DNA of 64,000 bases. Source: Leisingera caerulea DSM 24564 (lineage in GTDB: Bacteria > Pseudomonadota > Alphaproteobacteria > Rhodobacterales > Rhodobacteraceae). The stretch is from assembly GCF_000473325.1 (NCBI RefSeq), contig NZ_KI421513.1:1807217-1871216 (forward strand), written 5' to 3'. The notes under the pieces were generated by a model, which worked only from the letters and a program-made list of their open reading frames with translations, had not been told where the DNA came from and made no database searches. Shown here one piece after another: positions 11,828 through 25,114 of the stretch. The position numbers were made by a program, and so were the translations under genes. Position 1 is the stretch's first letter. Each line of letters opens with the position of its first letter.

Positions 11828-11890
11828 GTTGTCCTCCCATTTGACAAATCGCGGTCAAGCCGCTCATGACTGAAAGGGAGCACAGCAAGC

Positions 11891-11906
11891 TGACACAAAC
11901 CTGTCA
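11891..11906. promoter_or_regulatory. Dyad between tctC and the divergent response regulator gene
   Basis: TGACA and TGTCA form perfect five-base arms around CAAACC in the 117-base divergent promoter region. It is a candidate response-regulator site, from position and symmetry only. Confidence 0.3.
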
Positions 11907-11944
11907 CGGGACCGCGGGGGACCGTTTCGAAAGGAGCCGCGCCG

Positions 11945-12610
11945 ATGCGCTTCCTGCTGGTTGAGGACAACGAAAGCCTGGCAAAGGCCATTCTGGACCG
12001 TCTGCGGCTGGATGGGCATGTTGTGGATCATGCGCCGGATGTGAGCACCGCCTCGGCGTTTTCCGGCACGACGGATTACGATTTGATATTACTGGATATT
12101 ATGCTGCCGGACGGGGACGGGCGCAGCTTCCTCAAGAGCCATCGGGAGAACCGGAAGGAGACCCCGGTGATTGTTCTGACGGCCCGCTCCGAGGTGTCTG
12201 ACCGGGTCGGGATGCTGGACCTTGGCGCCGACGATTACATCACCAAGCCGTTCGATTTTTCCGAGCTTGAGGCGCGCTGCCGGGCGGTGCTGCGGCGGCG
12301 CGGCGGCGGCAGTTCCAACCTGAGGCGATTCGGAAACCTGCAGTTTGACCCGATGGCGGGAACGCTGTCCGCCGGCGGCAGGACCATCACGCTGCGCAAC
12401 CGGGAACTGCGGCTGCTGGAGGTGTTTCTGAATGCGCCGGACCGGATTTTTTCCAAACCGAACCTGGTCGACCGGCTGTTTTCCTATGATGAGGAGGTTT
12501 CGGAAAACGCGATCGAGGTCTATGTGGCCCGGCTGCGCAAGCATCTGGCCGGGTCCGGGGTGCAGATCACCACGGTGCGCGGCCTGGGCTACCGGCTGAG
12601 CCTGGAATGA
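11945..12610 (+). CDS. tctD: OmpR/PhoB-family response regulator, TctD-like
   Basis: A 221-residue response regulator. The receiver domain (residues 1-115) keeps the acidic pair E7/D8, the phosphoacceptor D51 (LLDIMLPDGDG), Thr79 and Lys101 (ITKPFD). The C-terminal winged helix (about 125-221) ends in the canonical VRGLGYRL. It is divergent from tctCBA and overlaps the kinase gene by ATGA, so it very probably activates tctCBA in response to the carboxylate substrate, as TctDE and BctDE do elsewhere. Confidence 0.88.
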   Translation: MRFLLVEDNESLAKAILDRLRLDGHVVDHAPDVSTASAFSGTTDYDLILLDIMLPDGDGRSFLKSHRENRKETPVIVLTARSEVSDRVGMLDLGADDYITKPFDFSELEARCRAVLRRRGGGSSNLRRFGNLQFDPMAGTLSAGGRTITLRNRELRLLEVFLNAPDRIFSKPNLVDRLFSYDEEVSENAIEVYVARLRKHLAGSGVQITTVRGLGYRLSLE

Positions 12611-13992
12611 GCGCGGCGGTCAATGTCAGCGGCTCGCTGCGCCGCCGCCTGCTGTTGCAGCTTTTGGGCAGTGCTGCGCTGCTGGCGGCGGTCCTGTTTT
12701 TCGCGGTGCTGGGGTTTGTCCGCAATGTTGCCGTGGAAAGCCACGACAGGATCCTGCTGGCCTCGGCAACCTCGATACTGGACTCCGTTTCGGTGCAATC
12801 TGGGGAGCTCACGGCCGACATCCCCTATGCCGCCCTGTCGATGCTGGGCAATGTCAGCGACGACCGGGTGTTCTACCGGATCGCAAGCCCCGCAGGGGTG
12901 CTGACCGGGTACGCTGATCTGCCTGCAGGCGGCCAGCCGGCCCAGCCGCGGCAGCCGTTGTTCGAGACCGCTGAATACAAGGACGAGACGATCCGGGCGG
13001 TGACGGTATCGCGCCGCCTGTCGGCGCAGGGCGCGCCGGTGGCGGTGCAGGTGACGGTTGCGCAGACCCGCGCCGGCCAGGCGGCCTTGCTGGCGCAGCT
13101 GTTCCGCTCCGCGCTTTTTCTGGGGGTGGGGTTCTTTGTGCTGGCCTCGGGCCTGGCGGTCTGGACCGCGCAGTCCAGCATCACCCCGCTGCGGTCGCTG
13201 ACCGAAGCGATCTCGCGGCGCGGCCCCAAGGATCTGCGCCCCGTGACCCGTCCGGTGCCGGCCGAAATGTCGCCGCTGGTGTCCTCGCTCAACAGCTTCA
13301 TCCGACGCCTGCAGGCCTCGCTGACCCGGTCCGAGGACTTTATCGCCGAAGCCGCGCACCGGGTGCGCACGCCGCTGGCGACGGTGCGCACCCAGGCGGA
13401 GGTCACCCTGATGCGGGTGGAGAAAGAAGACAACCGGGCCAGCCTGCGCGAAATGATCCGCGCCATTGACGAAAGCTCCCGCGCGGCCGGGCAGCTCTTG
13501 GATCATGCCATGGTGTCGTTCCGCACCGACAGCCTGGAGCAGGAAGAGGTCAACCTGACCGCGCTGGCGCGCGACCTGGCCGAGCGGCTGCAGCCGGTGG
13601 CGGAGCTTAAGGATATCGCCCTGCATTTCCAAAGCGATGGTGATGCCACCATCAAGGGCGACGCGATCCTGCTGCAAAACGCGGTCCGCAATGTTCTGGA
13701 CAATGCCATCAAATACTCGGGACGGGAACGGGATGTATGGATCCGCACGGTCAGCGCTGGCAAGGAGGCCTGTATCGAAGTGGAGGATGAGGCGGGCGGC
13801 TTTGGCGGTGAAGACACCGAAGCCCTGACCCGCCGCTTCGTCCGGGGCGCCAATGCCGGGGAGACCATCGGTTCGGGGCTGGGGCTGACCATCGCCCGCG
13901 AGGTGGCGGAGGCCCACGGCGGCCGCCTGATTATCGAAAACAGCCAGACAGGAGCAGGCGCGTGCGTTACACTTTGTTTTCCGCTTTCCTGA
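12607..13992 (+). CDS. tctE: Sensor histidine kinase, TctE-like
   Basis: A 461-residue membrane kinase. Helix one (about residues 14-38) and helix two (about 172-192) bracket a periplasmic sensor region of the two-component-kinase N-terminal type, followed by a linker, a dimerisation domain with phosphoacceptor His251 (AEAAHRVRTPLA) and an ATPase domain with NVLDNAIKYS, the EDEAGGF region and GSGLGLTIA. Its start overlaps the response regulator stop, and its last 31 bases overlap the downstream binding-protein gene, so three genes are translationally coupled. Confidence 0.88.
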   Translation: MSAAVNVSGSLRRRLLLQLLGSAALLAAVLFFAVLGFVRNVAVESHDRILLASATSILDSVSVQSGELTADIPYAALSMLGNVSDDRVFYRIASPAGVLTGYADLPAGGQPAQPRQPLFETAEYKDETIRAVTVSRRLSAQGAPVAVQVTVAQTRAGQAALLAQLFRSALFLGVGFFVLASGLAVWTAQSSITPLRSLTEAISRRGPKDLRPVTRPVPAEMSPLVSSLNSFIRRLQASLTRSEDFIAEAAHRVRTPLATVRTQAEVTLMRVEKEDNRASLREMIRAIDESSRAAGQLLDHAMVSFRTDSLEQEEVNLTALARDLAERLQPVAELKDIALHFQSDGDATIKGDAILLQNAVRNVLDNAIKYSGRERDVWIRTVSAGKEACIEVEDEAGGFGGEDTEALTRRFVRGANAGETIGSGLGLTIAREVAEAHGGRLIIENSQTGAGACVTLCFPLS

Positions 13993-14996
13993 CTAGTCTG
14001 ATCTTTGCCGCGGCAGCGGCCACCGGGTTCGAGGTGGAGGAACGGCACTGGATCGGCCCTGAGGACGGCACCGTCCTGCGGGTGATTTCCACCACGGACA
14101 CGGCCATTCTGGCGCCTTTGATCGGCAGCTTTCTGGAAGACCGTCCGGGGGTGGCGATCGAGTACACTGTCGCCAACAGCAGCGAGGTGATGAAGGCGGT
14201 TCTGGAGGGGGAGGAGCCCTTTGACGTTGCTTTGTCCTCGGCCATGGATCTGCAGACCAAGCTGGCCAATGACGGTTTCACCCGGCCGCATCAGTCCGCA
14301 TCGACCGCGCTGATCCCGGATTGGGGCGAGTGGCGCGGCCATGTGTTTGCCTTTTCCCTGGAGCCCGCGTCCATCGTCGTGTCGGCGGCAGCCTTTTCCG
14401 GCGGGGAGGTCCTGCGCACACGGCAGGACCTGATTTCGCTGCTGCGGGCGCAGCCGGAACGGTTCCGCGGCAAGGTGGGCACGTATGATGTGTCCCTCAG
14501 CGGGCTGGGGTATCTGTTTGCGACCCAGGATGCGCGCACATCGGAAACCTACTGGCGGCTTATGGAAGTCATCGGCGGTTTGGATCCGAAGCTGTTCTGC
14601 TGTTCTTCCAGCATGATCGAAAGTGTCGCGTCGGGGGAGATCCTGGTGGCCTATAACGTCCTGGGCAGCTATGCGCGGGCCCGGCGGGATCTGGCGGACA
14701 AGATCATTGTGATCGACCCGGAGGATTACACCCATCTGATGATGCGCTCTGCCGTGCTGCTGAGGGGCGGACGGCAGCCAGGGCTGGCACGGAGCTTTGC
14801 CGACCATCTGGCAACCGCGGCCTGGTTGCAGCCGCCGGCGGAAAACTACCCCTTCAGGCAGCCGCCGGTCGCCTTTGTGGACAGCGCCAGCCCGAAACGG
14901 CCGATTCAGCTGGGCCCGGGCCTGCTAGTCTATCTGGACGCCGAAAAACGCCGCCGCTTCATGGCGGAATGGTTCAGTGCGGTGCGGAAGCAATGA
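13962..14996 (+). CDS. Extracellular solute-binding protein coupled to the TctDE-like kinase
   Basis: A 344-residue secreted protein of the type II periplasmic binding fold (ABC-type iron/polyamine-like). The start is GTG inside the kinase gene. Residues 1-20 form a signal peptide (LFSAFLTSLIFAAAAATG). The mature part begins with a strand LRVISTTDTAILAPLIGSFL typical of the fold and carries VALSSAMDLQ and VAYNVLGSYA blocks. No ABC permease or ATPase is nearby. Translational coupling to the kinase suggests it is an accessory periplasmic sensor that presents a ligand to TctE, rather than a transport component. It may alternatively serve a transporter elsewhere. Confidence 0.78.
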   Translation: MRYTLFSAFLTSLIFAAAAATGFEVEERHWIGPEDGTVLRVISTTDTAILAPLIGSFLEDRPGVAIEYTVANSSEVMKAVLEGEEPFDVALSSAMDLQTKLANDGFTRPHQSASTALIPDWGEWRGHVFAFSLEPASIVVSAAAFSGGEVLRTRQDLISLLRAQPERFRGKVGTYDVSLSGLGYLFATQDARTSETYWRLMEVIGGLDPKLFCCSSSMIESVASGEILVAYNVLGSYARARRDLADKIIVIDPEDYTHLMMRSAVLLRGGRQPGLARSFADHLATAAWLQPPAENYPFRQPPVAFVDSASPKRPIQLGPGLLVYLDAEKRRRFMAEWFSAVRKQ

Positions 14997-15056: not shown

Positions 15057-16604
15057 TCAAAGCTGGTCCAGCACCTTGCGGGCGCTGTCCAGGTATTCCT
15101 CCTGCCGCGGCTCCGGCATCCTGTCCCAGGTGCTGTAGGCCCGCTTGAGGCGCGGGTTGTTGCGCAGCTTGTCCCGGTTGCGCACCAGGAAATCCCAGTA
15201 AAGCGGGTTGAACGGGCAGGCGTCTTCGCCGGTTTTCTTTGTCACGCTGTAGCGGCAGCCTGCGCAGTGGTCGGACATCTTGTTGATGTAATTGCCGCTG
15301 GCGGCATAGGGTTTCGACCCCAGCAGGCCGCCATCGGCATACTGGCTCATGCCGATCACGTTGGGCGCCTCCACCCATTCATAGGCGTCGGCGTAGACCG
15401 CCAGATACCATTCGTGCACCTGATGCGGGTCGATGCCCGCCAGCATGGCGAAGTTTCCCGTCACCATCAGCCGCTGGATGTGATGCGCATAAGCCTCGTC
15501 GCGGGTTTGGCGGACCGCGGCCGCCACGCAGGCCATGTCCGTGTCAGCGGTCCAGTAGAAGCCGGGCAGGGGGCGGGTGGCCTCCAAGAAGTTCTGTTCG
15601 GTATAGCCCGGCATGTTGCGCCAGTAGATCCCGCGCACGTATTCGCGCCAGCCGATGATCTGGCGGATGAACCCCTCAGCCGCGTTGAGCGGGGCATCCC
15701 CCTCGTAATACGCCCGCTCCACCCGGCGGCAGACCTCCAGCGGCTCCAACAGGCCGGCATTGATATAGTGCGACAGGACGGAGTGATAGAGGAACCGTTC
15801 CCCCTCCAGCATTGCATCCTGGTAGTCGCCGAAATTCGGCAGCGCCTCCGCGGCGAAGCGCTCCAGCGCCGCCAGCGCCTCCTCGCGGGTCACCGCAAAC
15901 CAGAACGGGCGCAGGGTGCCGAAGTGGTCGCCGAACTGCGCCTCCACCAGATCCAGAACCTCCTCTGTGATCTCATCCGGGCTGGTTTGCGGCGGCTCCG
16001 GCAGCGTCAGGCCGTCCTCTGCCGGCTTGCGGTTCTCGTGATCGAAGTTCCATTTGCCGCCTTCCGGCTCATCGCCGTCCATCAGCAGCCCGGTTTCGCG
16101 GCGCATCTCGCGGTAGAAATACTCCATCCGCAGCTGCTTGCGCCCCTCGGCCCATTCGCCAAACCGCTCGTGGGAGCAGAGAAACCGGCTGTCTTGCAGC
16201 ATGTCCAGGGGAACATCCGACGCCTCCGCCCAGTCCTGAAGAGCCGATTTCAGCCGGTATTCGCCGGGCTCGGTCACAACCACGCGGGCCACCGGATGCG
16301 CCGCGCGCAGACGGTCGATTTCACCGGTCAGGCTGCCGGAGTTATCCGGGTCGTCCAGGCGCACGTAATGCACCTGCCAGCCGTCCTCCTTTAGCTCTTT
16401 GGCAAAGTGGCGCATTGCCGAAAACAGAAACGCGATCTTCTTCTTGTGGTGCTGGACGTAACCGGCTTCCTCCGCAACTTCCGCCATCAGGACGATGTCG
16501 CGGTCAGGGTCTGCGCGCTTGAGCGCGGCGATGTTGCGGCTGAGCTGATCGCCCAGAATGAGGATGAGGCTGCGCTCACCGGTCTGATCGTCAGAGGAGG
16601 TCAT
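15057..16604 (-). CDS. Iron-sulfur bacterial cryptochrome/photolyase (FeS-BCP, 6-4 photolyase type)
   Basis: A light-driven flavoprotein of the PhrB/CryB class. It repairs (6-4) photoproducts or acts as a photoreceptor. The N-terminal alpha/beta domain begins LILILGDQLS, and the C-terminal FAD-binding part has GWREYVRGIYW and the HHIQRLMVTGNFAMLAG block. Four cysteines at 359, 447, 450 and 463 have exactly the spacing (88, 3 and 13) of the [4Fe-4S] ligands of Agrobacterium PhrB. It is 515 residues, normal for the class. It starts 19 bases after the DUF3833 gene in the same direction, so it appears to be the last gene of the leftward lipid operon and under RpoE control. Confidence 0.92.
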   Translation of the reverse strand: MTSSDDQTGERSLILILGDQLSRNIAALKRADPDRDIVLMAEVAEEAGYVQHHKKKIAFLFSAMRHFAKELKEDGWQVHYVRLDDPDNSGSLTGEIDRLRAAHPVARVVVTEPGEYRLKSALQDWAEASDVPLDMLQDSRFLCSHERFGEWAEGRKQLRMEYFYREMRRETGLLMDGDEPEGGKWNFDHENRKPAEDGLTLPEPPQTSPDEITEEVLDLVEAQFGDHFGTLRPFWFAVTREEALAALERFAAEALPNFGDYQDAMLEGERFLYHSVLSHYINAGLLEPLEVCRRVERAYYEGDAPLNAAEGFIRQIIGWREYVRGIYWRNMPGYTEQNFLEATRPLPGFYWTADTDMACVAAAVRQTRDEAYAHHIQRLMVTGNFAMLAGIDPHQVHEWYLAVYADAYEWVEAPNVIGMSQYADGGLLGSKPYAASGNYINKMSDHCAGCRYSVTKKTGEDACPFNPLYWDFLVRNRDKLRNNPRLKRAYSTWDRMPEPRQEEYLDSARKVLDQL

Positions 16605-16623
16605 CGGGTATCACCGTCAGGGG

Positions 16624-17172
16624 TCAGTTGGCAGGCCGCATGGTGGCGACCAGTTCCGCAACCTTGAGGCCGAATTTGCGCATTTCGGACTTGTTCATGA
16701 TCACCCCGTCAGCTGTGAGATACAGCCAGTCGGTGGCTTTAAGGGTGTGACCGCCTGCGCTTTCGGGCAGGATGATCTCGTAGCTCAGCTGCACGGTGGA
16801 GCCGGACACGATGCCCTTGGCCTCTCCGGCCAGGTCATCGGCTGTGGCGGTGAAGGTGTTGTCGGGCCCGAGGGTCAGGAACCATTTCCGGCTTTGGGTG
16901 ACGCCGTTGGAATAGGTGAACTCTTCGCTCAGTGTGCCGGTATCGCCGTCCCATTCGCCCACCATTTTGGCGGTGAAGCTGTTGGCCATCTTGCCAGTTG
17001 GGCCGAAAATCACCCCCTCCGACAGGATCTCGCCGGACAGGTGCTGGGTCAGGATGAACTGCGGGCCGGTGTCCGCATAATCCTGCGGCGACTGGAAGCG
17101 GAAGCTTAACAAATAGGTTTTTGCGATCATCACAAGCACGATGATGGCAAGGGCAAGGGTCAGGAGTTTCAT
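16624..17172 (-). CDS. DUF3833 family lipocalin-like protein
   Basis: A 182-residue protein with one N-terminal hydrophobic segment (MKLLTLALAIIVLVMIAKTY) that is either a signal peptide or a membrane anchor, followed by a beta-rich body (GPTGKMANSFTAKMVGEW, then FTYSNG and RKWFLT) matching the DUF3833 pattern. Its ATG overlaps the MFS stop (ATGA). A homologue occurs in the RpoE-dependent lipid gene set of Rhodobacter sphaeroides. Its biochemical role is not known; a lipid-binding function is inferred from the fold and the neighbours. Confidence 0.78.
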   Translation of the reverse strand: MKLLTLALAIIVLVMIAKTYLLSFRFQSPQDYADTGPQFILTQHLSGEILSEGVIFGPTGKMANSFTAKMVGEWDGDTGTLSEEFTYSNGVTQSRKWFLTLGPDNTFTATADDLAGEAKGIVSGSTVQLSYEIILPESAGGHTLKATDWLYLTADGVIMNKSEMRKFGLKVAELVATMRPAN

Positions 17173-18398
17173 GCGGTTGCTCTCTCTGATGGCAGGGTCA
17201 GGGCAAAGGCGAAGGCGGCGGTTTTCAGAACGCAGGGCAGCACGGCATAGGCCAGGGCCAGCGCGCTGAGCGCCCGGGCGCTGTTGTCCGCCCCGGGCTG
17301 GAAGCCCTGCTGCTCCAGCAGCGGCAGCGCCAGGGCGGCGGCAAGGGCCAGCGCCAGCTTGCCGGCAAAGGACCAGATGCCAAAGGCGGCGGAGGCGTTG
17401 AGGCCCGCGCGGGTCAGCGCGATGCTGAACATGGCGGGCAGCAGCACCATGTCGGCGCCCAGGGTGGCGCCCGACACCGCGCAGATCACCGCAAACCCCA
17501 GCAGGCTGCCCGGTCCCAGAAAGGCTGCGCCGGCAAAGCTGGCAATGGCCAGCGGCATGGCGATAAGCAGCGTCTGTTTCGCCCCGATCCGCTGGCTGAG
17601 GCGCGCCCACAGCGGCACGCTGAGGCCGGCGCAGAGGAAAAACAGCACCAGCAGCGGCCCTGCATAGGCGGGAAGGTTCAGCCGGTCCTCGACAAAGAAC
17701 AGGAACAGGGTTGAGGTCAGCGCCACCGGCAGGCTGTTGAGCACAGCCAGCGCCAGCAGGCGTACCGCGCCGGCCTGGGTCAGGGCCATCGCCGATAGCG
17801 GCTGGCCGGTGACAGCCGGGCGCTTCCACATGGGGCGGGTGGCCGCAGCGGTGAACAGGGCAAAGCCGCCGAGGGTCAGGCCAAAGGCGGCATAGCCCTG
17901 GCCCGCGGCTCCGAGCGCCACCAGAACCGCCGGCGCGATGGCGGCAAAGATCACGCCGCTGAGCATGCCCGCCTCGCGGAAGGCGGCCAGCGTCATCAGC
18001 TCGCGCGGGGTGGATTGCTTGGCCAGCGTGGCGCTGCGGCCATAGAGCAGGATCATGCCCAGGCTGTAGGCCGAAAACAGCAGCAGCAGGACCAAGACCA
18101 GCTTAGGCACCACCAGCGGGCCTGCCGTCAGGCCGAACAGCAGCGGAAATCCGACCGCCAGACCGCCCGCCGCCGCCAGCGCGAACCAAAGCTGCGCCCT
18201 GGGCCAGCGGTCGATAGCCCAGCCGATCAGCGGGTCCTGAACCAGATCGAACAGCCGGATCACCAGCAGGATGCCGCCAAGCGCCCCCAGGCCGATCCCC
18301 AAATTCACCGAGGCAAACTGCGGCAGGTGGATATAAAGCGGGATCCCCGCCGAGGCGAGCATCATCGCATAGAGGCTGACGCGCGGATACAACATCAT
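17169..18398 (-). CDS. MFS transporter of the GPH (sugar:cation symporter-like) family
   Basis: A 409-residue membrane protein with about 12 hydrophobic segments. The IRLFDLVQDPLIGWAIDRW motif near residue 47 is the characteristic GPH/MFS_2 signature. It overlaps both neighbours by four bases. Family members move sugars, but within this stress-lipid operon a role in moving a lipid precursor or lysophospholipid is plausible (MFS_2 also contains lysolipid carriers); this is inference. Confidence 0.82.
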   Translation of the reverse strand: MMLYPRVSLYAMMLASAGIPLYIHLPQFASVNLGIGLGALGGILLVIRLFDLVQDPLIGWAIDRWPRAQLWFALAAAGGLAVGFPLLFGLTAGPLVVPKLVLVLLLLFSAYSLGMILLYGRSATLAKQSTPRELMTLAAFREAGMLSGVIFAAIAPAVLVALGAAGQGYAAFGLTLGGFALFTAAATRPMWKRPAVTGQPLSAMALTQAGAVRLLALAVLNSLPVALTSTLFLFFVEDRLNLPAYAGPLLVLFFLCAGLSVPLWARLSQRIGAKQTLLIAMPLAIASFAGAAFLGPGSLLGFAVICAVSGATLGADMVLLPAMFSIALTRAGLNASAAFGIWSFAGKLALALAAALALPLLEQQGFQPGADNSARALSALALAYAVLPCVLKTAAFAFALTLPSERATA

Positions 18399-18889
18399 CA
18401 GCCCAGCAGCGCGCGGGTGAACCGGGCGGAGCGGGTGTTTGTGCCGACAAAGATCGACATGAAGCCGCGCTTGATACCGGGCTGGCTCAGTGTGCAGGCG
18501 GTGCGACCATTGCGCAGGAACTTCACCCGGTCAGGCCCCTGGCTGACGGCCAGATACCGGTCGCCGGGGGAGACGGCCTGGAAACAGGCCTCAAACCGGG
18601 TGCGGGCCGGGGCGGGCTGCCCCAGCCGCCGCATTTCGCGCAGGGTGGCCTCGACCAGATCCTTCTGGCTCAGCCGGCGCTGATAGGTCAGCTCAATGCC
18701 GAAATCCTGCGACCAGTCCAAGGGTGCGGCGCCCCTGGTGAACAACCGGGCCTGATAGACCGGAAAACCAAGGAACCGGAATGTCGCAGCGCCGCGCTGT
18801 TCGGCCCCCGGCAGCAGCGACTGCACCGGGGAGGCAGCGCCTGCCGCCGGAACCGCCAGCAGGCAAAGGGCCAGCAGCAGCCTACGCAT
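18398..18889 (-). CDS. Secreted chalcone-isomerase-like protein
   Basis: A 163-residue exported protein: signal peptide MRRLLLALCLLAVPAAGAAS, then the pattern GAATFRFLGFPVYQARLFT followed by FGIELTYQRRLSQKDLVEATLREMRRLG, which matches the chalcone isomerase-like (Chalcone_3) domain. The fold binds fatty acids in related proteins. The ATG at 18889 is chosen for the clean signal peptide; it overlaps the Cfa gene end by eight bases. It lies in a membrane-lipid modification operon, so fatty-acid binding in the periplasm is a reasonable guess. The catalytic residues of plant chalcone isomerase cannot be assigned. Confidence 0.75.
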   Translation of the reverse strand: MRRLLLALCLLAVPAAGAASPVQSLLPGAEQRGAATFRFLGFPVYQARLFTRGAAPLDWSQDFGIELTYQRRLSQKDLVEATLREMRRLGQPAPARTRFEACFQAVSPGDRYLAVSQGPDRVKFLRNGRTACTLSQPGIKRGFMSIFVGTNTRSARFTRALLG

Positions 18890-20039
18890 GGGCCAGCTCC
18901 ACCTGCACAACATTGGTGTGGCCGATGGCAAAGGAGGCGGCACAGATCTCCAGATAGTACTGCCAGTTGCGGAAGAACGCCTCGCCATAGCCCAGTTCAG
19001 CGATCCGGCGCTTCTGCGCCGCCAGGCGCTGGGCCCAGATCCGGCAGGTGCGGGCATAATCCTGGCCGAAGGCAAAACTGTCCGCGACCTGCAGCCCGGC
19101 GGATTTTGCCTGCTGCGCGATCACTTGGTCTGACAGCAGCATACCGCCGGGAAAGACATACTGGCGGATGTAGTCGGAGGAGGTCCGGTAGGTCGGAAAG
19201 AAGTCATCCCGCACGGTGATCGCCTGCAGCAACACCCGGCCGCCCTCGGCCAGGCTGTTTTTGAGCTTGGCGAAATAGCTGGGCCAATACCGCTCGCCCA
19301 CGGCCTCGATCATCTCGATGGAGACGATGCTGCTGAATTTGCCCTCGATATCGCGGTAGTCGCGCAGCTGGATGTCGGCGCGCCCGTCCAGGCGGCTTTC
19401 GGCATAGCTGTGCTGGTTGCGGGATATGGTAACACCGGTCACATCGCGGCCCTCGGCGCTGGCCTGTTCGGCAAAGCCGCCCCAGCCGCAGCCGATCTCC
19501 AGCACCTGTTCGCCATCCCCCAGCCGCGACAGGATGCGGGCGTTCTTTCGGGTCTGCGCCTGCGCCAGGTCATCGCCCTCTGTCCCGAACAGGCCGGAGG
19601 AATAGGTCATGCCGTCGTCCAGCCACAGCTGGTAGAACTCATTGCCGACATCGTAATGGGCGCGGATGTTCTTGCGCGCGCCGCGTTTGGAATTGGCCCG
19701 CAGCAGGGTGTCGACGATACGGAACTTGGCGCGGTTCAGCGGGCTGGCCTGATCGTAGCTGCCCAGGTGGTCCCGGTTGCGCATCGCCAGCTGCATCAGG
19801 GCATCGACCGACGGGGTGTCCCACAGGCCCTGCACATAGGCCTCGCCCAGTCCGACCTGGCCGTGCGCCGCCATTGCGGAAACCGCGGCCCAGTCGTTGA
19901 TCTGCATTTCGGCCTCGGGGCCGCTGTCGCCGAATTCATAGCGTGCGCCATCCGGTGTGCGCAGCGTCAGCCGGCCCTCACGCAGTCGCGCGCAGGTGTC
20001 CAGGAATTCCGACTGAAGGGCTTTGTCCGTGAATGCCAT
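18882..20039 (-). CDS. Cfa-family SAM-dependent fatty-acyl-phospholipid methyltransferase (cyclopropane synthase or UfaM-like)
   Basis: A 385-residue SAM-dependent enzyme that modifies the double bond of membrane phospholipid acyl chains. It has an N-terminal lipid-interacting region (to about residue 115), the Cfa signature NIRAHYDVGNEFYQLWLDD, SAM motif VLEIGCGWGGFAE, and the C-terminal blocks QYVFPGGMLLS and FFRNWQYYLEICAASF. In R. sphaeroides a RpoE-controlled homologue starts furan fatty acid synthesis by methylating vaccenate chains. The FAD partner encoded upstream (62-base overlap) and the RpoE-type promoter favour that role over ordinary cyclopropanation, but sequence alone cannot separate them. 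Confidence 0.88.
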   Translation of the reverse strand: MAFTDKALQSEFLDTCARLREGRLTLRTPDGARYEFGDSGPEAEMQINDWAAVSAMAAHGQVGLGEAYVQGLWDTPSVDALMQLAMRNRDHLGSYDQASPLNRAKFRIVDTLLRANSKRGARKNIRAHYDVGNEFYQLWLDDGMTYSSGLFGTEGDDLAQAQTRKNARILSRLGDGEQVLEIGCGWGGFAEQASAEGRDVTGVTISRNQHSYAESRLDGRADIQLRDYRDIEGKFSSIVSIEMIEAVGERYWPSYFAKLKNSLAEGGRVLLQAITVRDDFFPTYRTSSDYIRQYVFPGGMLLSDQVIAQQAKSAGLQVADSFAFGQDYARTCRIWAQRLAAQKRRIAELGYGEAFFRNWQYYLEICAASFAIGHTNVVQVELAHA

Positions 20040-21327
20040 GATCTGTTCCTTTGACCGGGGAGGGGGTGAGAGAATTCATCATGCGGACAATCCGCATGGC
20101 GCTGGCGATACCGTCTTCGTGAAAGCCGTGGCGGTTGTAGGCACCGGCAAACCAGGTCCGGTTCTGCCCTTGCATCGCCCGGATCTGCTGCTGCGCACGC
20201 AGCGCCGCCTTGTCGAAGACCGGGTGCGAGAATTCCACCGTGTCGTAAATCTTGTCTGCTGCAATGGGTCGGGTTGGGTTCAGGGTTACAAACAGCGGAT
20301 CGCATTCGGGGATGCTTTGCAGGCGGTTCATCCAGTAGGTGACGCCGACGCCGCCGTCCTGGCTGCGGTAGGCCCAGCTGGACCAGCAGCTGCGCCGCTT
20401 GGGCATCTGGCCTTCGTCGCAATGCAGAACCGCCGTGTTCGGCTGATAGCGGATTGACCCCAGCGCTGCCGCCTCTTCCGGTGTGGCATCAGCCCCCAGA
20501 ATGGCCAGCGCCTGATCGGAATGGCAGGCAAGGATGATCTCGTCGAACAGGTGCGGGTCTGCGCCCTCTGCCTGCACCGAAACACCGCCCGCCTGCCGGG
20601 TGACGTTCCGGATCGGGCTGCCGGTGCGGATCTCGCAGCCCCGCGCAACCAGCGCCGTCTCAAGCCGGCGGACATATTCGATGCTGCCGCCCTTGACGGT
20701 CCACCACTGGTGCTTGCCGGTGCCCGCCAGCAGCGCGTGGTTGCGGAAGAAGCGAACCAGCGATTTCGCCGGAAAGGCGTCGACATCGGTGACCGGGGTC
20801 GACCAGATCGCACCGCACATCGGCATCAGGTAATGGTTGCGGAACCAGCTGCCCAGGCCCAGCTCCTCCACCAGCTCGCCGATGGTTTTGTCGTCATCGG
20901 TGGCGGCGGCCTCGGCCCGTTTGCCGAAGCGCACAATGTCCGCGACCATCTTGTGAAACTGCGGCCGCACCAGGTTGCGCTTTTGCGCGGCCAGCATCCG
21001 CAGGCTGTTCAGCCCGTATTCCAGGCGGCCGTCGTCGATGCTGGCGCAAAAGCTCATCTCGCTTCTGATCACCGGCACATCCAGCTCGCGGAACAGCCGG
21101 GTAAGGTAAGGGTAGGTGGCATAGTTGAACACGATAAAACCGGTATCGACCGGCTGATCGCCGTTCTTTCCCGCCAGAACGGTGCGCGCGTGGCCGCCCA
21201 GCCGGGGGGCGGCCTCAAACAAGGTAACGTCATGTCTTTCAGACAGGTAATATGCCGCGGCCAGCCCGGAAATACCGCCTCCTACGATGGCAATCTTGCG
21301 CCGTGGCCCCTGAGTTTGATCCAGCAT
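19978..21327 (-). CDS. FAD-dependent amine-oxidase-type oxidoreductase, probable fatty-acyl desaturase (UfaD-like)
   Basis: A 449-residue flavoprotein. The Rossmann motif VGGGISGLAAAYYLSERHDVTLFEA is followed by the second dinucleotide motif RLGGHARTV, as in phytoene desaturase and amine oxidases. Family members always lie beside Cfa-type methyltransferases and DUF1365 genes. The R. sphaeroides homologue is linked to furan fatty acid synthesis, desaturating the methylated acyl chain. It is the first gene of the leftward operon, about 25 bases after a predicted RpoE promoter, and its 3' end overlaps the methyltransferase start by 62 bases. Confidence 0.83.
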   Translation of the reverse strand: MLDQTQGPRRKIAIVGGGISGLAAAYYLSERHDVTLFEAAPRLGGHARTVLAGKNGDQPVDTGFIVFNYATYPYLTRLFRELDVPVIRSEMSFCASIDDGRLEYGLNSLRMLAAQKRNLVRPQFHKMVADIVRFGKRAEAAATDDDKTIGELVEELGLGSWFRNHYLMPMCGAIWSTPVTDVDAFPAKSLVRFFRNHALLAGTGKHQWWTVKGGSIEYVRRLETALVARGCEIRTGSPIRNVTRQAGGVSVQAEGADPHLFDEIILACHSDQALAILGADATPEEAAALGSIRYQPNTAVLHCDEGQMPKRRSCWSSWAYRSQDGGVGVTYWMNRLQSIPECDPLFVTLNPTRPIAADKIYDTVEFSHPVFDKAALRAQQQIRAMQGQNRTWFAGAYNRHGFHEDGIASAMRIVRMMNSLTPSPVKGTDHGIHGQSPSVGIPGHLRATA

Positions 21328-21358
21328 GCGTCGGTTTTCCCTTGCTGTTGTTTAGACC

Positions 21359-21387
21359 GGATACGCCGCAGGCAAGAAAGCGGATCA
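21359..21387 (-). promoter_or_regulatory. Predicted RpoE (ECF11) promoter of the leftward lipid operon
   Basis: On the minus strand TGATCC (21387-21382), 17 bases, then GTATCC (21364-21359). TGATCC is the established -35 type of RpoE-ChrR promoters. The element is mirrored by an almost identical one on the plus strand 30 bases away. Confidence 0.75.
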
Positions 21388-21417
21388 CCGCATTCGCGAT
21401 AAAACTGTGTTTGCGGG

Positions 21418-21446
21418 TGATCCGGGGCGGCGGCGCCTGCGTATCC
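21418..21446 (+). promoter_or_regulatory. Predicted RpoE (ECF11) promoter of the DUF1365-SDR operon
   Basis: TGATCC (21418-21423), 17 bases, then GTATCC (21441-21446). The expected transcription start falls at about the ATG of the DUF1365 gene (21452), so the message may be leaderless. Confidence 0.75.
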
Positions 21447-21451
21447 GGTGC

Positions 21452-22222
21452 ATGATTGAGCATGTTTCAGCACAGACTTTTCATGCCCGCCGCGGGCGGC
21501 TGAAGAACGCCTTCCGCTATGGCGTGGACTACATCTTGACCGATATGACCCTCGGCGCGCCGCCGCTGCTGTCGCGCAACCGCTTCAACCTGTTTTCGGT
21601 CCACGACCGCCGCCACGGCGGCCCGCGCGGCTGCGGCCGTGGCACCCTGTGGTTCCGGGAGGAGCTGGAGCGGCGCGGTTTCCCTTTGGAGGGCGCTCAG
21701 CTGCTGCTGCTGACCCAGCCGAGCTTCCTGTGGTTTCATTTCAACCCGGTGAGCTTCTGGATTGCGGTCAGGGACGGCAGCCCGCGGGCCTTTATCGCGG
21801 AGGTCAACAACACCTTCGGCCACCGCCACTGCTATTTCGCGGCGCACCCGGACTTCGGCCCGATCCGGCACAGCGATGTGATCGAGGCGGAAAAGCTGAT
21901 GCATGTCTCGCCGTTTCAGCAGGTGGCCGGGCGCTACCGGTTCAATTTCGGGATGACGGACCAGGCGTTCAACATCCGGATTTCCTACACCAATGGGACT
22001 GAGGGCGTGCTGGCCACGCTGGAGGGCGTGCGCCGCCCGGTGACATCCGGCGGGTTGCTGCGGGCTGCGCTGCGCAGGCCGTTCGGGGCGGCCCGTGTCG
22101 TTGCGCTGATCTATTGGCAGGCGCTCAAGCTCTGGATCAAGCGCGCGCCGTTTTTGCGTAAGCCGCCACCGCCGGAGCCGCTGATTTCCGACAGTTCGAC
22201 GTTTTCAGGAGGCGGAGCATGA
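21452..22222 (+). CDS. DUF1365 family protein of the lipid-modification cluster
   Basis: A 256-residue cytoplasmic protein with the DUF1365 pattern: N-terminal VSAQTFHARRGRLKNAFRYGVDY, FNPVSFWI and EVNNTFGHRHCYF, then HVSPF and a C-terminal conserved basic stretch. DUF1365 genes nearly always accompany the Cfa methyltransferase and FAD oxidoreductase found divergently here, so it is probably an accessory enzyme of the same acyl-chain modification. The ATG at 21452 has no ribosome-binding site and coincides with the predicted transcript start. It overlaps the SDR gene by ATGA. Its reaction is unknown. Confidence 0.85.
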   Translation: MIEHVSAQTFHARRGRLKNAFRYGVDYILTDMTLGAPPLLSRNRFNLFSVHDRRHGGPRGCGRGTLWFREELERRGFPLEGAQLLLLTQPSFLWFHFNPVSFWIAVRDGSPRAFIAEVNNTFGHRHCYFAAHPDFGPIRHSDVIEAEKLMHVSPFQQVAGRYRFNFGMTDQAFNIRISYTNGTEGVLATLEGVRRPVTSGGLLRAALRRPFGAARVVALIYWQALKLWIKRAPFLRKPPPPEPLISDSSTFSGGGA

Positions 22223-22944
22223 CAGATTTTGCAGGCAAGACCATCTGGATGGTCGGGGCCAGCCACGGGCTGGGGCGCGAGGTGGCGCGGAAGCTGGACC
22301 GGGCGGGCGCCCGGCTGGTTTTGTCGGCACGCTCCGAAGACGCGCTGGAGGAGCTGGCAAGCGAGCTGAAACAGGCGCAGGCGGTGCCGCTGGATGTGAC
22401 CGATGCGGAATCTGTCGCAGAGGCTTTCCGTCGGGCCGGGCCAGTTGACGCGCTCCTTTATAACGCCGGCGCCTATGAGCCGATGCGGACCCAGGACTGG
22501 GATGCGGAGGCCGTGCTGGCGATGAGCGACGTGAACTTCACCGGAGCGCTGCGGGTTCTGGGGCATGTTGTCCCCGGGTTTGTCGAGGCGGGCCGGGGCG
22601 ATATCACGCTGGTCGGATCTTTGGCCGGCTACCGGGGGCTGCCCGCCTCCATTGGCTATGGCGCCAGCAAGGCCGCGCTGATCAGCCTGGCGGAAACCAT
22701 GCGGCATGATCTGAAGGACAGCGGTGTTACTGTCCGCGTGGTCAACCCGGGCTTTATCAAAACCCGGCTGACCGACAAGAACAGCTTTAAGATGCCGCAG
22801 CTGATGGAGCCTGAGGAGGCCGCCGGGCATGTGGTTTCTGCCATGCAGTCGCGCCGGTTCCGGACGGATTTCCCCCGTCCTTTCTCCTATGCGATCAAGG
22901 CGTTTGACATGCTGCCCGACTGGCTGGCCTATCGCGGGAAATAA
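22219..22944 (+). CDS. Short-chain dehydrogenase/reductase
   Basis: A classical SDR of 241 residues. It has the cofactor motif GASHGLGREVA at residues 11-21, NAG near residue 81, the catalytic Ser (VGSLAGY), and the active-site YGASK with Tyr and Lys. It is translationally coupled to the DUF1365 gene and shares its predicted RpoE promoter. A homologous SDR is part of the RpoE regulon of R. sphaeroides. The substrate is unknown. Confidence 0.85.
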   Translation: MTDFAGKTIWMVGASHGLGREVARKLDRAGARLVLSARSEDALEELASELKQAQAVPLDVTDAESVAEAFRRAGPVDALLYNAGAYEPMRTQDWDAEAVLAMSDVNFTGALRVLGHVVPGFVEAGRGDITLVGSLAGYRGLPASIGYGASKAALISLAETMRHDLKDSGVTVRVVNPGFIKTRLTDKNSFKMPQLMEPEEAAGHVVSAMQSRRFRTDFPRPFSYAIKAFDMLPDWLAYRGK

Positions 22945-22986: not shown

Positions 22987-23622
22987 TCAAATCCGGAACA
23001 GCGGCTGCAGCAGGCGCGGCATCAGCGCCTTGAACCGCAGCGGCGCGTCGGTGGCGGCCAGGCAGATGCAGGGATCGCCCGCATCTGCGACCGGCGTGTG
23101 CTCCAGATCTTCATCGCCGATTTCGACATCACCGACACTAAACCGCCCGGTCTCGTCGCTGAAACTGCCCTGCAGCACCAGGGTCAGCTCCAGCCCGTTG
23201 TGGCTGTGATCGGGCACAGCTTGACCGGCCGGGATGAACAGCAGCCGGGCAGAGCCGTGCTTGTCCTCGAACAGGATGTCCTGTTTCACCCCCATGCCCA
23301 GCGTCTTCCAGCGCGGCGGCCGCCCTTTCAGCGACTGCATCACTGCGCCCGGGTAAATGCCCTTGGCGTCATAAACCGGGTCCGGCACGGCAGGCGCATC
23401 CAATTCCGCCAGAACCTTGGACTTCAGCGCGGGCTCCAGCGCCACGCACTCCGCTTCCTCAAGAAGCGCACCGCCCGCGGCCTGATGCGCGCCAAGCGCG
23501 GCCTGGCAATCGCGGCAATAGGACAGGTGGCTGGCCACAACCATCGAAAAGGCATGCGGCAGGCTGCCCGAGGCATAGGCCGCGATCATCGGGTCGGGGA
23601 TGTGATGTGTGATTGCAGGCAT
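22987..23622 (-). CDS. chrR: Zinc anti-sigma factor ChrR
   Basis: ChrR binds RpoE and releases it in response to singlet oxygen. The 211-residue protein has the N-terminal zinc-binding anti-sigma domain with His6, His32, Cys36 and Cys39 (SHLSYCRDC), and a C-terminal cupin-like domain with His139, His141, Glu145 and His175 (PDHSHNGLE, LEHTPV) matching the second zinc site of R. sphaeroides ChrR within one or two positions. The gene directly abuts rpoE with AAGGA before the ATG, so both are one operon. Confidence 0.93.
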   Translation of the reverse strand: MPAITHHIPDPMIAAYASGSLPHAFSMVVASHLSYCRDCQAALGAHQAAGGALLEEAECVALEPALKSKVLAELDAPAVPDPVYDAKGIYPGAVMQSLKGRPPRWKTLGMGVKQDILFEDKHGSARLLFIPAGQAVPDHSHNGLELTLVLQGSFSDETGRFSVGDVEIGDEDLEHTPVADAGDPCICLAATDAPLRFKALMPRLLQPLFRI

Positions 23623-24210
23623 TCAACGCAATCCTTTTAGTTCCTTGCGCAGCCGCCCCAGGCCAAGGCGGATGCGCGACTTTACTGTTCCCAGAGGCAA
23701 GCCGGTCTGGGTGCTGATCTCCTGATGGGTCAAATCCCCGATATAGGCCTTTTCGATCATCTCCTTCTGATCGGGGTGCAGCTGCTGGATCGCCTGCTTC
23801 AGGTGCAAGGACTCCTGCTCCAGGGCCAGGATCTGGCTGGCGTCGGGCTCGGTTCCGGGATCCTCGCCCAGCTCATCCGGGACGGGCCGGTTTTCCTTGC
23901 GCACGATATCTATGTGGCGGTTGCGGGCGATCTGATAGATCCAGGCTGACGCCTGCGCCTTGTGCGGATCAAACATCGCCGCCTTGCGCCAGATCGTCAG
24001 CATGACGTCCTGAACGATCTCCTCGGCCAGTGCAGGCCGCGCGCCGCAACGGATGATGAACCCCTTCAGGCGCGGGGCCAGGTGATCAAACATGTCGCCG
24101 AATGCCGCGCGGTCCCGGTGGTCGCGCACAGCCAGAAGCCAGACAGTCAGCTGCGAATAGGTTTTGTCTTTTGACACTACTGCTTTGCCCTCAGGGGATG
24201 CCCGAAGCAT
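23623..24210 (-). CDS. rpoE: ECF sigma factor RpoE (ECF11, singlet-oxygen response)
   Basis: A group IV sigma factor of about 195 residues. Region 2 (FGDMFDHLAPRLKGFIIR...EEIVQDVMLTIWRKA...AWIYQIARNRHIDIVRK) and region 4 (LHPDQKEMIEKAYIGDLTHQEISTQTGLPLGTVKSRIRLGLGRLR) are complete. The ATG at 24210 is chosen because GGGAA precedes it and because the upstream ATG at 24252 would coincide with the predicted transcript start. A TGATCC/GTAACC element upstream implies autoregulation. It should drive the two divergent lipid operons and the SDR gene at 24398 as well as its own operon. Confidence 0.92.
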   Translation of the reverse strand: MLRASPEGKAVVSKDKTYSQLTVWLLAVRDHRDRAAFGDMFDHLAPRLKGFIIRCGARPALAEEIVQDVMLTIWRKAAMFDPHKAQASAWIYQIARNRHIDIVRKENRPVPDELGEDPGTEPDASQILALEQESLHLKQAIQQLHPDQKEMIEKAYIGDLTHQEISTQTGLPLGTVKSRIRLGLGRLRKELKGLR

Positions 24211-24257
24211 AGCGGTATTCCCGGGCGACCTATCCAAGTTTAGTGTCAGCATAATCA

Positions 24258-24286
24258 GGTTACGCAGCGGTGGGAAAGTTGGATCA
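24258..24286 (-). promoter_or_regulatory. Predicted autoregulated RpoE promoter of rpoE-chrR
   Basis: On the minus strand TGATCC (24286-24281), 17 bases, GTAACC (24263-24258). It has the same spacing and near-identical hexamers as the two lipid-operon promoters. Confidence 0.75.
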
Positions 24287-24336: not shown

Positions 24337-24365
24337 TGATCCGTTCGACGTGCGGGCGCGTAACA
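24337..24365 (+). promoter_or_regulatory. Predicted RpoE promoter of the second SDR gene
   Basis: TGATCC (24337-24342), 17 bases, GTAACA (24360-24365), 32 bases before the SDR ATG. It is divergent from the rpoE promoter. Confidence 0.7.
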
Positions 24366-24397: not shown

Positions 24398-25114
24398 ATG
24401 CACAATATTGTTGTCAGCGGCGGGTCCGGGGCGATCGGGTCGGCCTTTGTTGACGAACTGGTCCGAAAATACCCGCACGCCCGCATCCACAGCCTGTCCC
24501 GCAGCCCGGACACCCGCGTTCCGGAGGGCGTGCAGTGGCTGCAGGTGGATTATCTGGATGAGGACAGCCTGCACGCCGCGGCGGAACAGGTCGCCAAGGA
24601 GGGCGCGGTTGATCTGATGATCGTGGCGGGAGGAATTCTGCATCAGGGGGATATGATGCCGGAGAAGTCCCTGAGAGACCTCAGCGCCGAGAAGCTGCTG
24701 GCGCTCTTTTCCGCAAATACGGTTGCCCCGGCCCTGACTGCAAAGCACTTCCTGCCTTTGCTGCCGCGTGACCGGCGGGGCGTGTTCGCGGCCCTGTCCG
24801 CACGGGTTGGCAGCATCTCCGACAACCATTTGGGCGGCTGGTACTCCTACCGGGCGTCCAAAGCTGCCCTGAACATGTTCATCCGCACTGCCGCGATAGA
24901 AATCCGCCGCCGCAACCCGCAGGCCATTGCCGCCGGGCTGCATCCCGGAACGGTGGAAAGCGGCCTGTCCCAGCCGTTCCTGCGGAACGTCGCCCCGGAC
25001 AAGCGCTTCCCGCCGCAGTATGCGGTGTCCCGGATGATGGACGTGATCGCCACCCTGACACCCGCCGACAGCGGCCAGTGTTATGCCTGGGACGGCAGCC
25101 TGATCGACCCCTGA
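24398..25114 (+). CDS. Short-chain dehydrogenase/reductase, probable RpoE regulon member
   Basis: A 238-residue SDR with cofactor motif GGSGAIGSAFVDELV at residues 8-22, a catalytic Ser region (FAALSARVGSI), and active-site YSYRASKAALN. AGGAAAG precedes the ATG. It is divergent from rpoE and carries its own RpoE-type promoter, so a role in the singlet-oxygen response is likely. It resembles the csgA/carbonyl reductase-like SDRs; the substrate is unknown. Confidence 0.85.
   Translation: MHNIVVSGGSGAIGSAFVDELVRKYPHARIHSLSRSPDTRVPEGVQWLQVDYLDEDSLHAAAEQVAKEGAVDLMIVAGGILHQGDMMPEKSLRDLSAEKLLALFSANTVAPALTAKHFLPLLPRDRRGVFAALSARVGSISDNHLGGWYSYRASKAALNMFIRTAAIEIRRRNPQAIAAGLHPGTVESGLSQPFLRNVAPDKRFPPQYAVSRMMDVIATLTPADSGQCYAWDGSLIDP

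What the first reader, a model, noticed from the sequence alone, without database searches (positions are those of the whole stretch)
15057..22944. Furan-type fatty acid genes and an iron-sulfur photolyase in one stress operon
FAD oxidoreductase, Cfa-family methyltransferase, chalcone-isomerase-like protein, MFS, DUF3833 and photolyase overlap or abut in one direction and appear to share one RpoE promoter. Homologues in R. sphaeroides are RpoE-dependent and tied to furan fatty acid synthesis. Coupling membrane quencher synthesis to DNA photorepair in a single transcript is notable, and the MFS, DUF3833 and chalcone-isomerase-like roles are undefined.
Basis: partly seen in the sequence, partly recalled or inferred. 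Interest (0 to 1): 0.75.

Follow-up and report, generated by a model that had tools for sequence, protein, structure and literature searches.

The report
Furan-lipid stress operon with (6-4) photolyase
In a marine Leisingera bacterium, genes predicted to build light-quenching furan membrane lipids share a light-stress control switch, and probably one transcript, with a DNA-repair photolyase; the pairing is an old theme in bacteria, but this type of photolyase in this operon is a new detail.

Summary
Six minus-strand genes (21327 to 15057) overlap or lie at most 19 nt apart behind one RpoE-type box, kept in 20 of 20 related loci. The operon Cfa is not the orthologue of R. sphaeroides UfaM (that one lies elsewhere beside a CPD photolyase) but has the UfaM-type active site. 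Photolyase-furan linkage is not new: 21 of 60 alphaproteobacterial loci have a CPD photolyase just 5' of ufaD, and a Shewanella operon is published. Distinctive here is a (6-4)-type Fe-S photolyase, apparently added once in a 12-genome Leisingera subclade. In the 28 best other Rhodobacteraceae loci it usually follows an SDR gene and lacks an RpoE box (1 of 28 above background); but Shewanella and R. capsulatus already tie this photolyase class to RpoE-type control. New variant of a known kind. L. daeponensis contains 16.6% 11-methyl-C18:1 (published); co-transcription and furan product are untested.

The parts
21362..21387 (-). RpoE-type box TGATCC-N17-GTA ahead of ufaD, starting 61 nt from the start codon
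   Evidence: at 59-61 nt in 20 of 20 loci with differing spacers
19978..21327 (-). ufaD-type FAD enzyme (amine-oxidase/phytoene-desaturase-like family)
   Evidence: Pfam Amino_oxidase; 528 bits to the UfaD-position protein of Luteovulum (Cereibacter) azotoformans, beside rpoE-chrR
18882..20039 (-). Cfa1, UfaM-type SAM-dependent fatty-acyl methylase, second copy in the genome
   Evidence: Pfam CMAS; 46.7% to the L. azotoformans UfaM-position protein; Q at the E. coli His266 position; tree
18398..18889 (-). CHI-fold (Chalcone_3) protein with a probable signal peptide (by eye)
   Evidence: model m40d9b3ac9b46, Foldseek
17169..18398 (-). MFS_2 / GPH-family transporter
   Evidence: Pfam MFS_2; weak PDB match, melibiose permease only
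16624..17172 (-). DUF3833: N-terminal helix (probable membrane anchor) plus 10-strand calycin-like barrel
   Evidence: Pfam; model m3e64fc42c081 pLDDT 93.7; Foldseek
15057..16604 (-). Fe-S (6-4)-type photolyase (PhrB/CryB family), last gene of the operon
   Evidence: Pfam DPRP; PDB PhrB 4dja E 2e-205 and CryB 3zxs E 1.5e-192; Cys 359, 447, 450, 463 in 12 of 12 Leisingera copies
21418..21443 (+). RpoE-type box for ufaO; its GTA ends 8 nt before the ATG, so the mRNA is predicted leaderless
   Evidence: seen in 16 of 20 loci by a strict pattern and in 19 of 20 read by eye
21452..22222 (+). ufaO-type DUF1365 protein (start ATG 21452)
   Evidence: Pfam DUF1365; UfaO = RSP1090 and bears DUF1365 (PMC7380195)
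22219..22944 (+). SDR oxidoreductase, homologue of the last gene of the R. sphaeroides-type operon
22987..23622 (-). chrR anti-sigma factor
   Evidence: NCBIfam anti_sig_ChrR 199 bits; PDB 2z2s ChrR
23623..24252 (-). rpoE, ECF sigma factor (start uncertain)
   Evidence: NCBIfam sigma70-ECF over its cut-off
24261..24286 (-). RpoE-type box ahead of rpoE-chrR
24337..24362 (+). RpoE-type box ahead of the SDR at 24398
24398..25114 (+). SDR; homologue (39-47% identity in the 14 comparisons printed) of the SDR paired with Fe-S photolyase in other Rhodobacteraceae

Best explanation
This is the RpoE-ChrR (ECF11) singlet-oxygen module of a Leisingera species. Cfa1 (and/or the distant copy Cfa2) methylates cis-vaccenoyl chains in phospholipid, UfaD desaturates the product, and UfaO adds an O2-derived oxygen to close the furan. 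CHI-fold, MFS and DUF3833 proteins probably bind or move the furan lipid or its oxidation products (inferred). When singlet oxygen releases RpoE, it starts two divergent transcripts: ufaD-cfa1-chi-mfs-duf3833-photolyase, and ufaO-sdr. The (6-4)-type photolyase was appended once to the operon's 3' end in an ancestor of a Leisingera subclade, so it now rides directly on RpoE. Shown by sequence: gene set, boxes, UfaM-type active site, one change of presence on the tree. Inferred: co-transcription, furan product, lesion specificity, gain rather than loss.
For: UfaD/UfaO/UfaM-type set next to rpoE-chrR. Box conserved in 20 of 20 loci for ufaD and 19 of 20 by eye for ufaO. Active site: Q at E. coli Cfa position 266 in 65 of 65 UfaM-type enzymes (63 from ufaD loci or the genus operon, plus Cfa2 and the L. 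azotoformans protein) against H in 6 of 6 FufM-like; further sample of 29: Q in 6 of 6 ufa-linked, H in 21 of 23 unlinked (3 of the 6 linked proteins come from genomes and places already in the first set). Photolyase in 12 of 21 Leisingera genomes, each time in the operon, 14-19 nt behind duf3833 in the 12 printed junctions; one change, support 99/99; no box-like site in the 620 bp 5' of it in 12 of 12. RSP1087-1091 and RSP2143-2144 are listed as RpoE regulon members responding to singlet oxygen (PMC7074977 table).
Against: No transcript or lipid data exist for this strain. R. sphaeroides cryB is RpoHII-controlled, so an undetected RpoH-type promoter inside duf3833 is possible; RpoH motifs were not modelled. 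RSP1087-1089 are dispensable for furan synthesis in R. sphaeroides. 9 of 21 genus members lack the photolyase and 2 of 21 lack ufaD.
Confidence: 0.74

Rival explanations
1. The photolyase is only parked behind the operon and is driven mainly by its own RpoH-type promoter inside duf3833, as cryB is RpoHII-controlled in R. sphaeroides.
For: [quoted passage not shown] sphaeroides (PMC7074977); 27 of 28 family loci show no RpoE box above background ahead of it.
Against: Short junctions kept in 12 of 12 carriers; no sigma-70-type site and no RpoE-type site near it; RpoH-type motifs were not modelled, so this rests on anatomy.
Confidence: 0.15
2. Cfa1 is not a vaccenate methylase but a FufM-like enzyme that methylates the furan ring again, or a methylase for another chain, while Cfa2 is the working UfaM.
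For: Cfa2, not Cfa1, groups with the L. azotoformans UfaM-position protein (100/100; 70.4% identity) and shares its phrA neighbour.
Against: Cfa1 has the Q/A residues that the six FufM-like enzymes lack and is far from them in the tree (which warns of long branches); 'FufM-like' is my label from gene neighbourhood and was not tied to RPA0924 by sequence.
Confidence: 0.22
3. The operon makes ordinary cyclopropane fatty acids, not furan ones.
For: Several automatic names call Cfa1 relatives cyclopropane synthases; Pfam CMAS; E. coli overexpressing a Halomonas UfaM was reported to hold cyclic chains besides the methylated one (PMC12089945).
Against: Active-site swap typical of ufa clusters; UfaD and UfaO present; L. 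daeponensis reports 11-methyl C18:1w7c as a major chain.
Confidence: 0.05

Closest known systems
R. sphaeroides RSP1087-1091 operon with rpoE-chrR (UfaD, UfaO, MFS, hypothetical, SDR) and RSP2143-2144 (phrA, ufaM)
   Same: Same UfaD, UfaO, MFS, DUF3833, SDR genes beside rpoE-chrR in the near relative L. azotoformans; RpoE boxes there; phrA-ufaM pair also present in Leisingera as phrA-Cfa2
   Different: Leisingera has ufaO-sdr turned round behind its own box, an extra UfaM-type Cfa1, a CHI-fold gene and a (6-4)-type photolyase in the operon
Shewanella oneidensis SO_3386-SO_3374 (phrB ... cfa) and SO_4169-4170 (DPRP photolyase, SDR), RpoE2 regulon (PMC4336711)
   Same: Photolyase and Cfa in one RpoE-type operon; the DPRP photolyase with an SDR is also RpoE2-dependent there, so RpoE-type control of this photolyase class is not new
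   Different: The photolyase in the cfa operon is PhrB; the DPRP type is in a separate transcription unit
R. capsulatus rpoE-chrR neighbourhood with cryB (PMC7074977)
   Same: Fe-S photolyase cryB beside rpoE-chrR and induced by singlet oxygen
   Different: No RSP1087-1091 homologues found in that genome by those authors
Pseudoalteromonas THAF3 and Salinivibrio clusters
   Same: phrB-NTF2-SDR-UfaD-DUF1365-Cfa-DUF2878-...-DUF3833; CHI annotated in Pseudoalteromonas
   Different: Photolyase is at the 5' side and matches the CPD type; DUF2878, no MFS
Azoarcus KH32C UfaD-DUF1365-Cfa-CHI-MFS-DUF3833-SDR-NTF2
   Same: Same order once DUF1365 and SDR are set aside; its Cfa falls in the Cfa1 branch, with weak support
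   Different: MerR regulator; no photolyase seen in the 19-kb locus
Agrobacterium PhrB and R. sphaeroides CryB (Fe-S photolyases; organisms recalled)
   Same: Nearly full-length homology, four cysteines kept
   Different: In an RpoE furan operon here; R. sphaeroides cryB is RpoHII-controlled

Membership tests
Bacterial furan fatty acid pathway (UfaM/UfaD/UfaO) | All three enzymes encoded | tested here: met
   UfaD, DUF1365/UfaO and UfaM-type Cfa1 in the window, Cfa2 elsewhere
Bacterial furan fatty acid pathway (UfaM/UfaD/UfaO) | Furan fatty acid produced | not testable with these tools
   Only 11-methyl C18:1w7c is published for L. daeponensis
UfaM-type methylase (Cfa1) | Residue set seen in ufa-cluster enzymes (Q at EcCfa 266, A at 240) | tested here: met
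   the set was derived here, the bicarbonate role of 139/266 is recalled
UfaM (RSP2144 orthologue) | Groups with the RSP2144-position protein and sits beside phrA | tested here: not met
   Cfa1 does not; Cfa2 does. RSP2144 itself was not fetched; the L. azotoformans counterpart stood in
Cyclopropane fatty acid synthase | C139/H266-type residues kept | tested here: not met
   S and Q instead
ECF11 RpoE-ChrR system | Adjacent ECF sigma and ChrR anti-sigma, box at own promoter | tested here: met
ECF11 RpoE-ChrR system | Singlet-oxygen induction | not testable with these tools
   no expression data
Fe-S bacterial cryptochrome/photolyase, (6-4) type | Homology to PhrB and four cluster cysteines | tested here: met
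Fe-S bacterial cryptochrome/photolyase, (6-4) type | Repair of (6-4) photoproducts | not testable with these tools
   inferred from PhrB, named (6-4) photolyase in PDB; CryB is a close relative too
Chalcone_3 / CHI fold | CHI fold | tested here: met
   Pfam score below cut-off for this protein
Chalcone_3 / CHI fold | Ligand (fatty acid, haem or none) | not tested
   fold relatives bind either (PMC9996372 passages)

The most novel reading that the evidence does not exclude
In a Leisingera subclade both classes of light-driven DNA repair are wired into furan-lipid synthesis under one sigma factor: phrA (CPD) with the UfaM orthologue Cfa2 at one locus, and the (6-4)-type Fe-S photolyase at the tail of the ufaD-cfa1 operon, after a switch from RpoH-type to RpoE control. 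Two UfaM-type methylases then make two different methylated/furan lipids, one per locus.
Probability: 0.3. Interest if true: 0.62.

Novelty: new variant of a known kind. Interest (0 to 1): 0.45.

Why it matters
It shows that membrane quencher synthesis and DNA photorepair are tied together repeatedly, with different photolyase classes and positions, so the link is likely selected. The genus gives a natural pair (12 genomes with, 9 without the photolyase) in which to ask what riding on the furan operon buys (6-4)-type repair in a marine bacterium. The Q-for-His266 signature gives a cheap test to separate furan-type methylases from cyclopropane synthases, which automatic names confuse.

Tried and rejected

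Photolyase coupling as unprecedented: rejected.

RpoE box ahead of phrA (L030:5696-5721) as a footprint: present in 18 of 21 genus genomes at -115 to -135, but it lies inside the upstream coding sequence, so its conservation may be codon conservation; suggestive only. L. azotoformans has a box at -54 of phrA.

MFS_2 as a lysolipid carrier of MFSD2A type (recalled idea): only melibiose permease found, weakly; left open.

Reading DUF3833 and CHI as haem proteins: fold relatives include nitrobindin, CpeS, Ycf58 and BFA1 and CHI, FAP and Aim18, so lipid and haem binding cannot be told apart.

Limits of counts: class survey found UfaD in 115 of 240 genomes; I fetched 60 of the 114 other than the window's own, the higher-scoring ones with some skipped, and did not examine 54. 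Cfa hits under 250 bits were dropped before the tree. The RpoE weight matrix was built from 39 of the 58 ufaD sites it was then scored on, so 54 of 58 is inflated; a strict pattern finds 39 of 58; the 1 of 28 for photolyase loci is not trained. Family search: photolyase in 147 of 248 genomes; only the 28 best non-genus loci, with flanks of at most 1.5 kb, were examined for context and 117 were not. CHI was not found in L159. The L. azotoformans search for CMAS covered a 3.1-Mb record, chromosome 1, not the whole genome. A first count of CPD photolyases 5' of ufaD gave 12 of 60 because over-long ORFs overlapped; the tblastn recount gave 21.
Full report
What is there. On the minus strand from 21327 to 15057 lie a UfaD-type FAD enzyme, Cfa1, a CHI-fold protein, an MFS_2 transporter, DUF3833 and a DPRP photolyase. 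The first four junctions overlap by 62, 8, 1 and 4 nt and the last gap is 19 nt (coordinates). On the plus strand, starting at 21452, DUF1365 and an SDR run the other way; chrR and rpoE follow on the minus strand.

Pathway. In R. sphaeroides UfaM is RSP2144, UfaD is RSP1091 and UfaO is RSP1090, a DUF1365 protein; deleting RSP1087, 1088 or 1089 changed no fatty acid (PMC7380195; outline, passages, sections 4 and 9 read). The window thus holds UfaD, UfaO and a Cfa. In Luteovulum (Cereibacter) azotoformans, the closest hit to R. sphaeroides ChrR (89%), the operon is UfaD-UfaO-MFS-DUF3833-SDR beside rpoE-chrR, and the only strong CMAS protein of its 3.1-Mb record sits beside phrA. The Leisingera genome has the same phrA-Cfa pair elsewhere, with the same gene upstream and cysK nearby (gene names by eye). 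That second copy, Cfa2, is 70.4% identical to the L. azotoformans protein; Cfa1 is 46.7%. In a 72-protein tree Cfa2 pairs with it (100/100), while Cfa1 lies in a branch of 16 with Azoarcus, Burkholderia and most CHI-bearing clusters (support for the 16 is weak, 93/65; for 14 of them 99/98).

Is Cfa1 furan-type? At the positions of E. coli Cfa His266 and His240, UfaM-type enzymes carry Gln in 65 of 65 and Ala in 64 of 65; six FufM-like enzymes (my label) keep His at both. In a further sample of 29 alphaproteobacterial CMAS loci, Q266 was found in 6 of 6 ufa-linked and in 2 of 23 unlinked proteins, H266 in 21 of 23 (context within 1.5 kb only; 3 of the 6 linked ones repeat the first set). One of the two unlinked Q proteins, L298, has the whole S/A/Q set; the other, L277, keeps C and H elsewhere. 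Cfa1 and Cfa2 are both Q/A. The bicarbonate role of residues 139 and 266 is recalled, not looked up. L. daeponensis contains 57.7% C18:1w7c and 16.6% 11-methyl C18:1w7c (PMC3910554, passage). That is a methylated vaccenate of the kind UfaM makes, so methylated acyl chains are made in this group; furan chains are unproven.

Control. TGATCC-N17-GTA occurs 21 times in the genome, 3 times when read backwards. Among those 21, the form with GCGTA is seen at ufaD, ufaO, rpoE, the SDR at 24398, and phrA-Cfa2. The ufaD box stands 59-61 nt before the start in 20 of 20 loci (the window, 18 genus regions, Pseudophaeobacter EL27) with changing spacers. The ufaO box ends 8 nt before the ATG in 19 of 20 loci, L165 being the exception (read by eye; 16 of 20 by the stricter pattern), which predicts a leaderless mRNA.

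The photolyase. It matches PhrB (4dja, 686 bits) and CryB (3zxs, 644 bits) and keeps four cysteines in 12 of 12 genus copies. It occurs in 12 of 21 Leisingera genomes and each time at the end of this operon. Presence maps to one branch, 99/99, in 100% of 200 bootstrap trees; it reads as one gain if the two outlying rows without it (L110, L165) are the outgroup. In the family it is found in 147 of 248 genomes; of the 28 best non-genus loci, 23 place it behind an SDR gene, 5 alone, and none showed ufa genes within 1.5 kb. An RpoE matrix scores above the 95% background at 54 of 58 ufaD genes (39 of them in its training) and at 1 of 28 photolyase loci, about what chance gives. R. sphaeroides cryB is in the RpoHII regulon; in R. 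capsulatus cryB lies by rpoE-chrR and is singlet-oxygen-induced (PMC7074977, section 22); Shewanella SO_4169 (DPRP) is RpoE2-dependent (PMC4336711, passages). So RpoE-type control of this class exists elsewhere; in Leisingera the simplest reading is that a gene usually under other control in this family was captured by the RpoE furan operon.

How common is the coupling? In 60 alphaproteobacterial ufaD loci, 21 have a CPD-type photolyase directly 5' of ufaD on the same strand; 0 have the Fe-S type on the same strand and 4 have it nearby on the other strand. Phyllobacterium 628 has UfaD-UfaO-photolyase; Pseudoalteromonas and Salinivibrio have phrB-NTF2-SDR-UfaD-DUF1365-Cfa. Shewanella SO_3386-3374 joins phrB and cfa under RpoE2. 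A search of the held library for 'photolyase' with 'furan fatty acid' listed 3 papers; I read passages of two (PMC7074977, PMC6852236) and only the listing of the third; the passages seen do not describe the Leisingera arrangement. Dufour 2008, cited by these for the core regulon, is not held.

Helpers. The CHI-like protein folds as a chalcone isomerase/FAP/Aim18 domain (pLDDT 91). DUF3833 has an N-terminal helix and a ten-strand calycin-like barrel (pLDDT 93.7). Both folds hold lipid or haem in relatives (CHI fold: PMC9996372 passages; barrel relatives by name only); with the MFS_2 transporter they are best read as handlers of furan lipids or their oxidation products. That step is inference.

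Noticed in passing
21418-21452: RpoE box with a fixed 8-nt distance to the ufaO ATG in 19 of 20 loci predicts a leaderless ufaO mRNA.
   Followed up: partly
19978-20039: ufaD and cfa1 reading frames overlap by 62 nt; UfaD aligns over its full length in 18 of the 19 genus genomes that have it and to residue 448 in the other, so the overlap looks kept.
   Followed up: no
L030:5696-5721: The only other GCGTA-type RpoE box in the genome lies inside the 3' coding end of the gene upstream of phrA-Cfa2.
   Followed up: partly
24398-25114: An SDR with its own RpoE box is divergent from rpoE; it was seen in 4 of 18 genus regions and is 39-47% identical, in the comparisons printed, to the SDR paired with Fe-S photolyase elsewhere.
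   Followed up: partly
L159: No CHI-fold gene detected between Cfa1 and MFS in this genome although the rest of the operon core is kept.
   Followed up: no
10844-14996: By eye from the ORF list: a tripartite-tricarboxylate-type binding protein, a response regulator and sensor kinase, and a further periplasmic-type protein whose gene is convergent with the photolyase gene.
   Followed up: no
L040, L048, L057 and other Ruegeria loci: In most Ruegeria loci ufaO alone stays beside rpoE-chrR; ufaD was not found in the fetched stretch, R. spongiae L091 being an exception.
   Followed up: no
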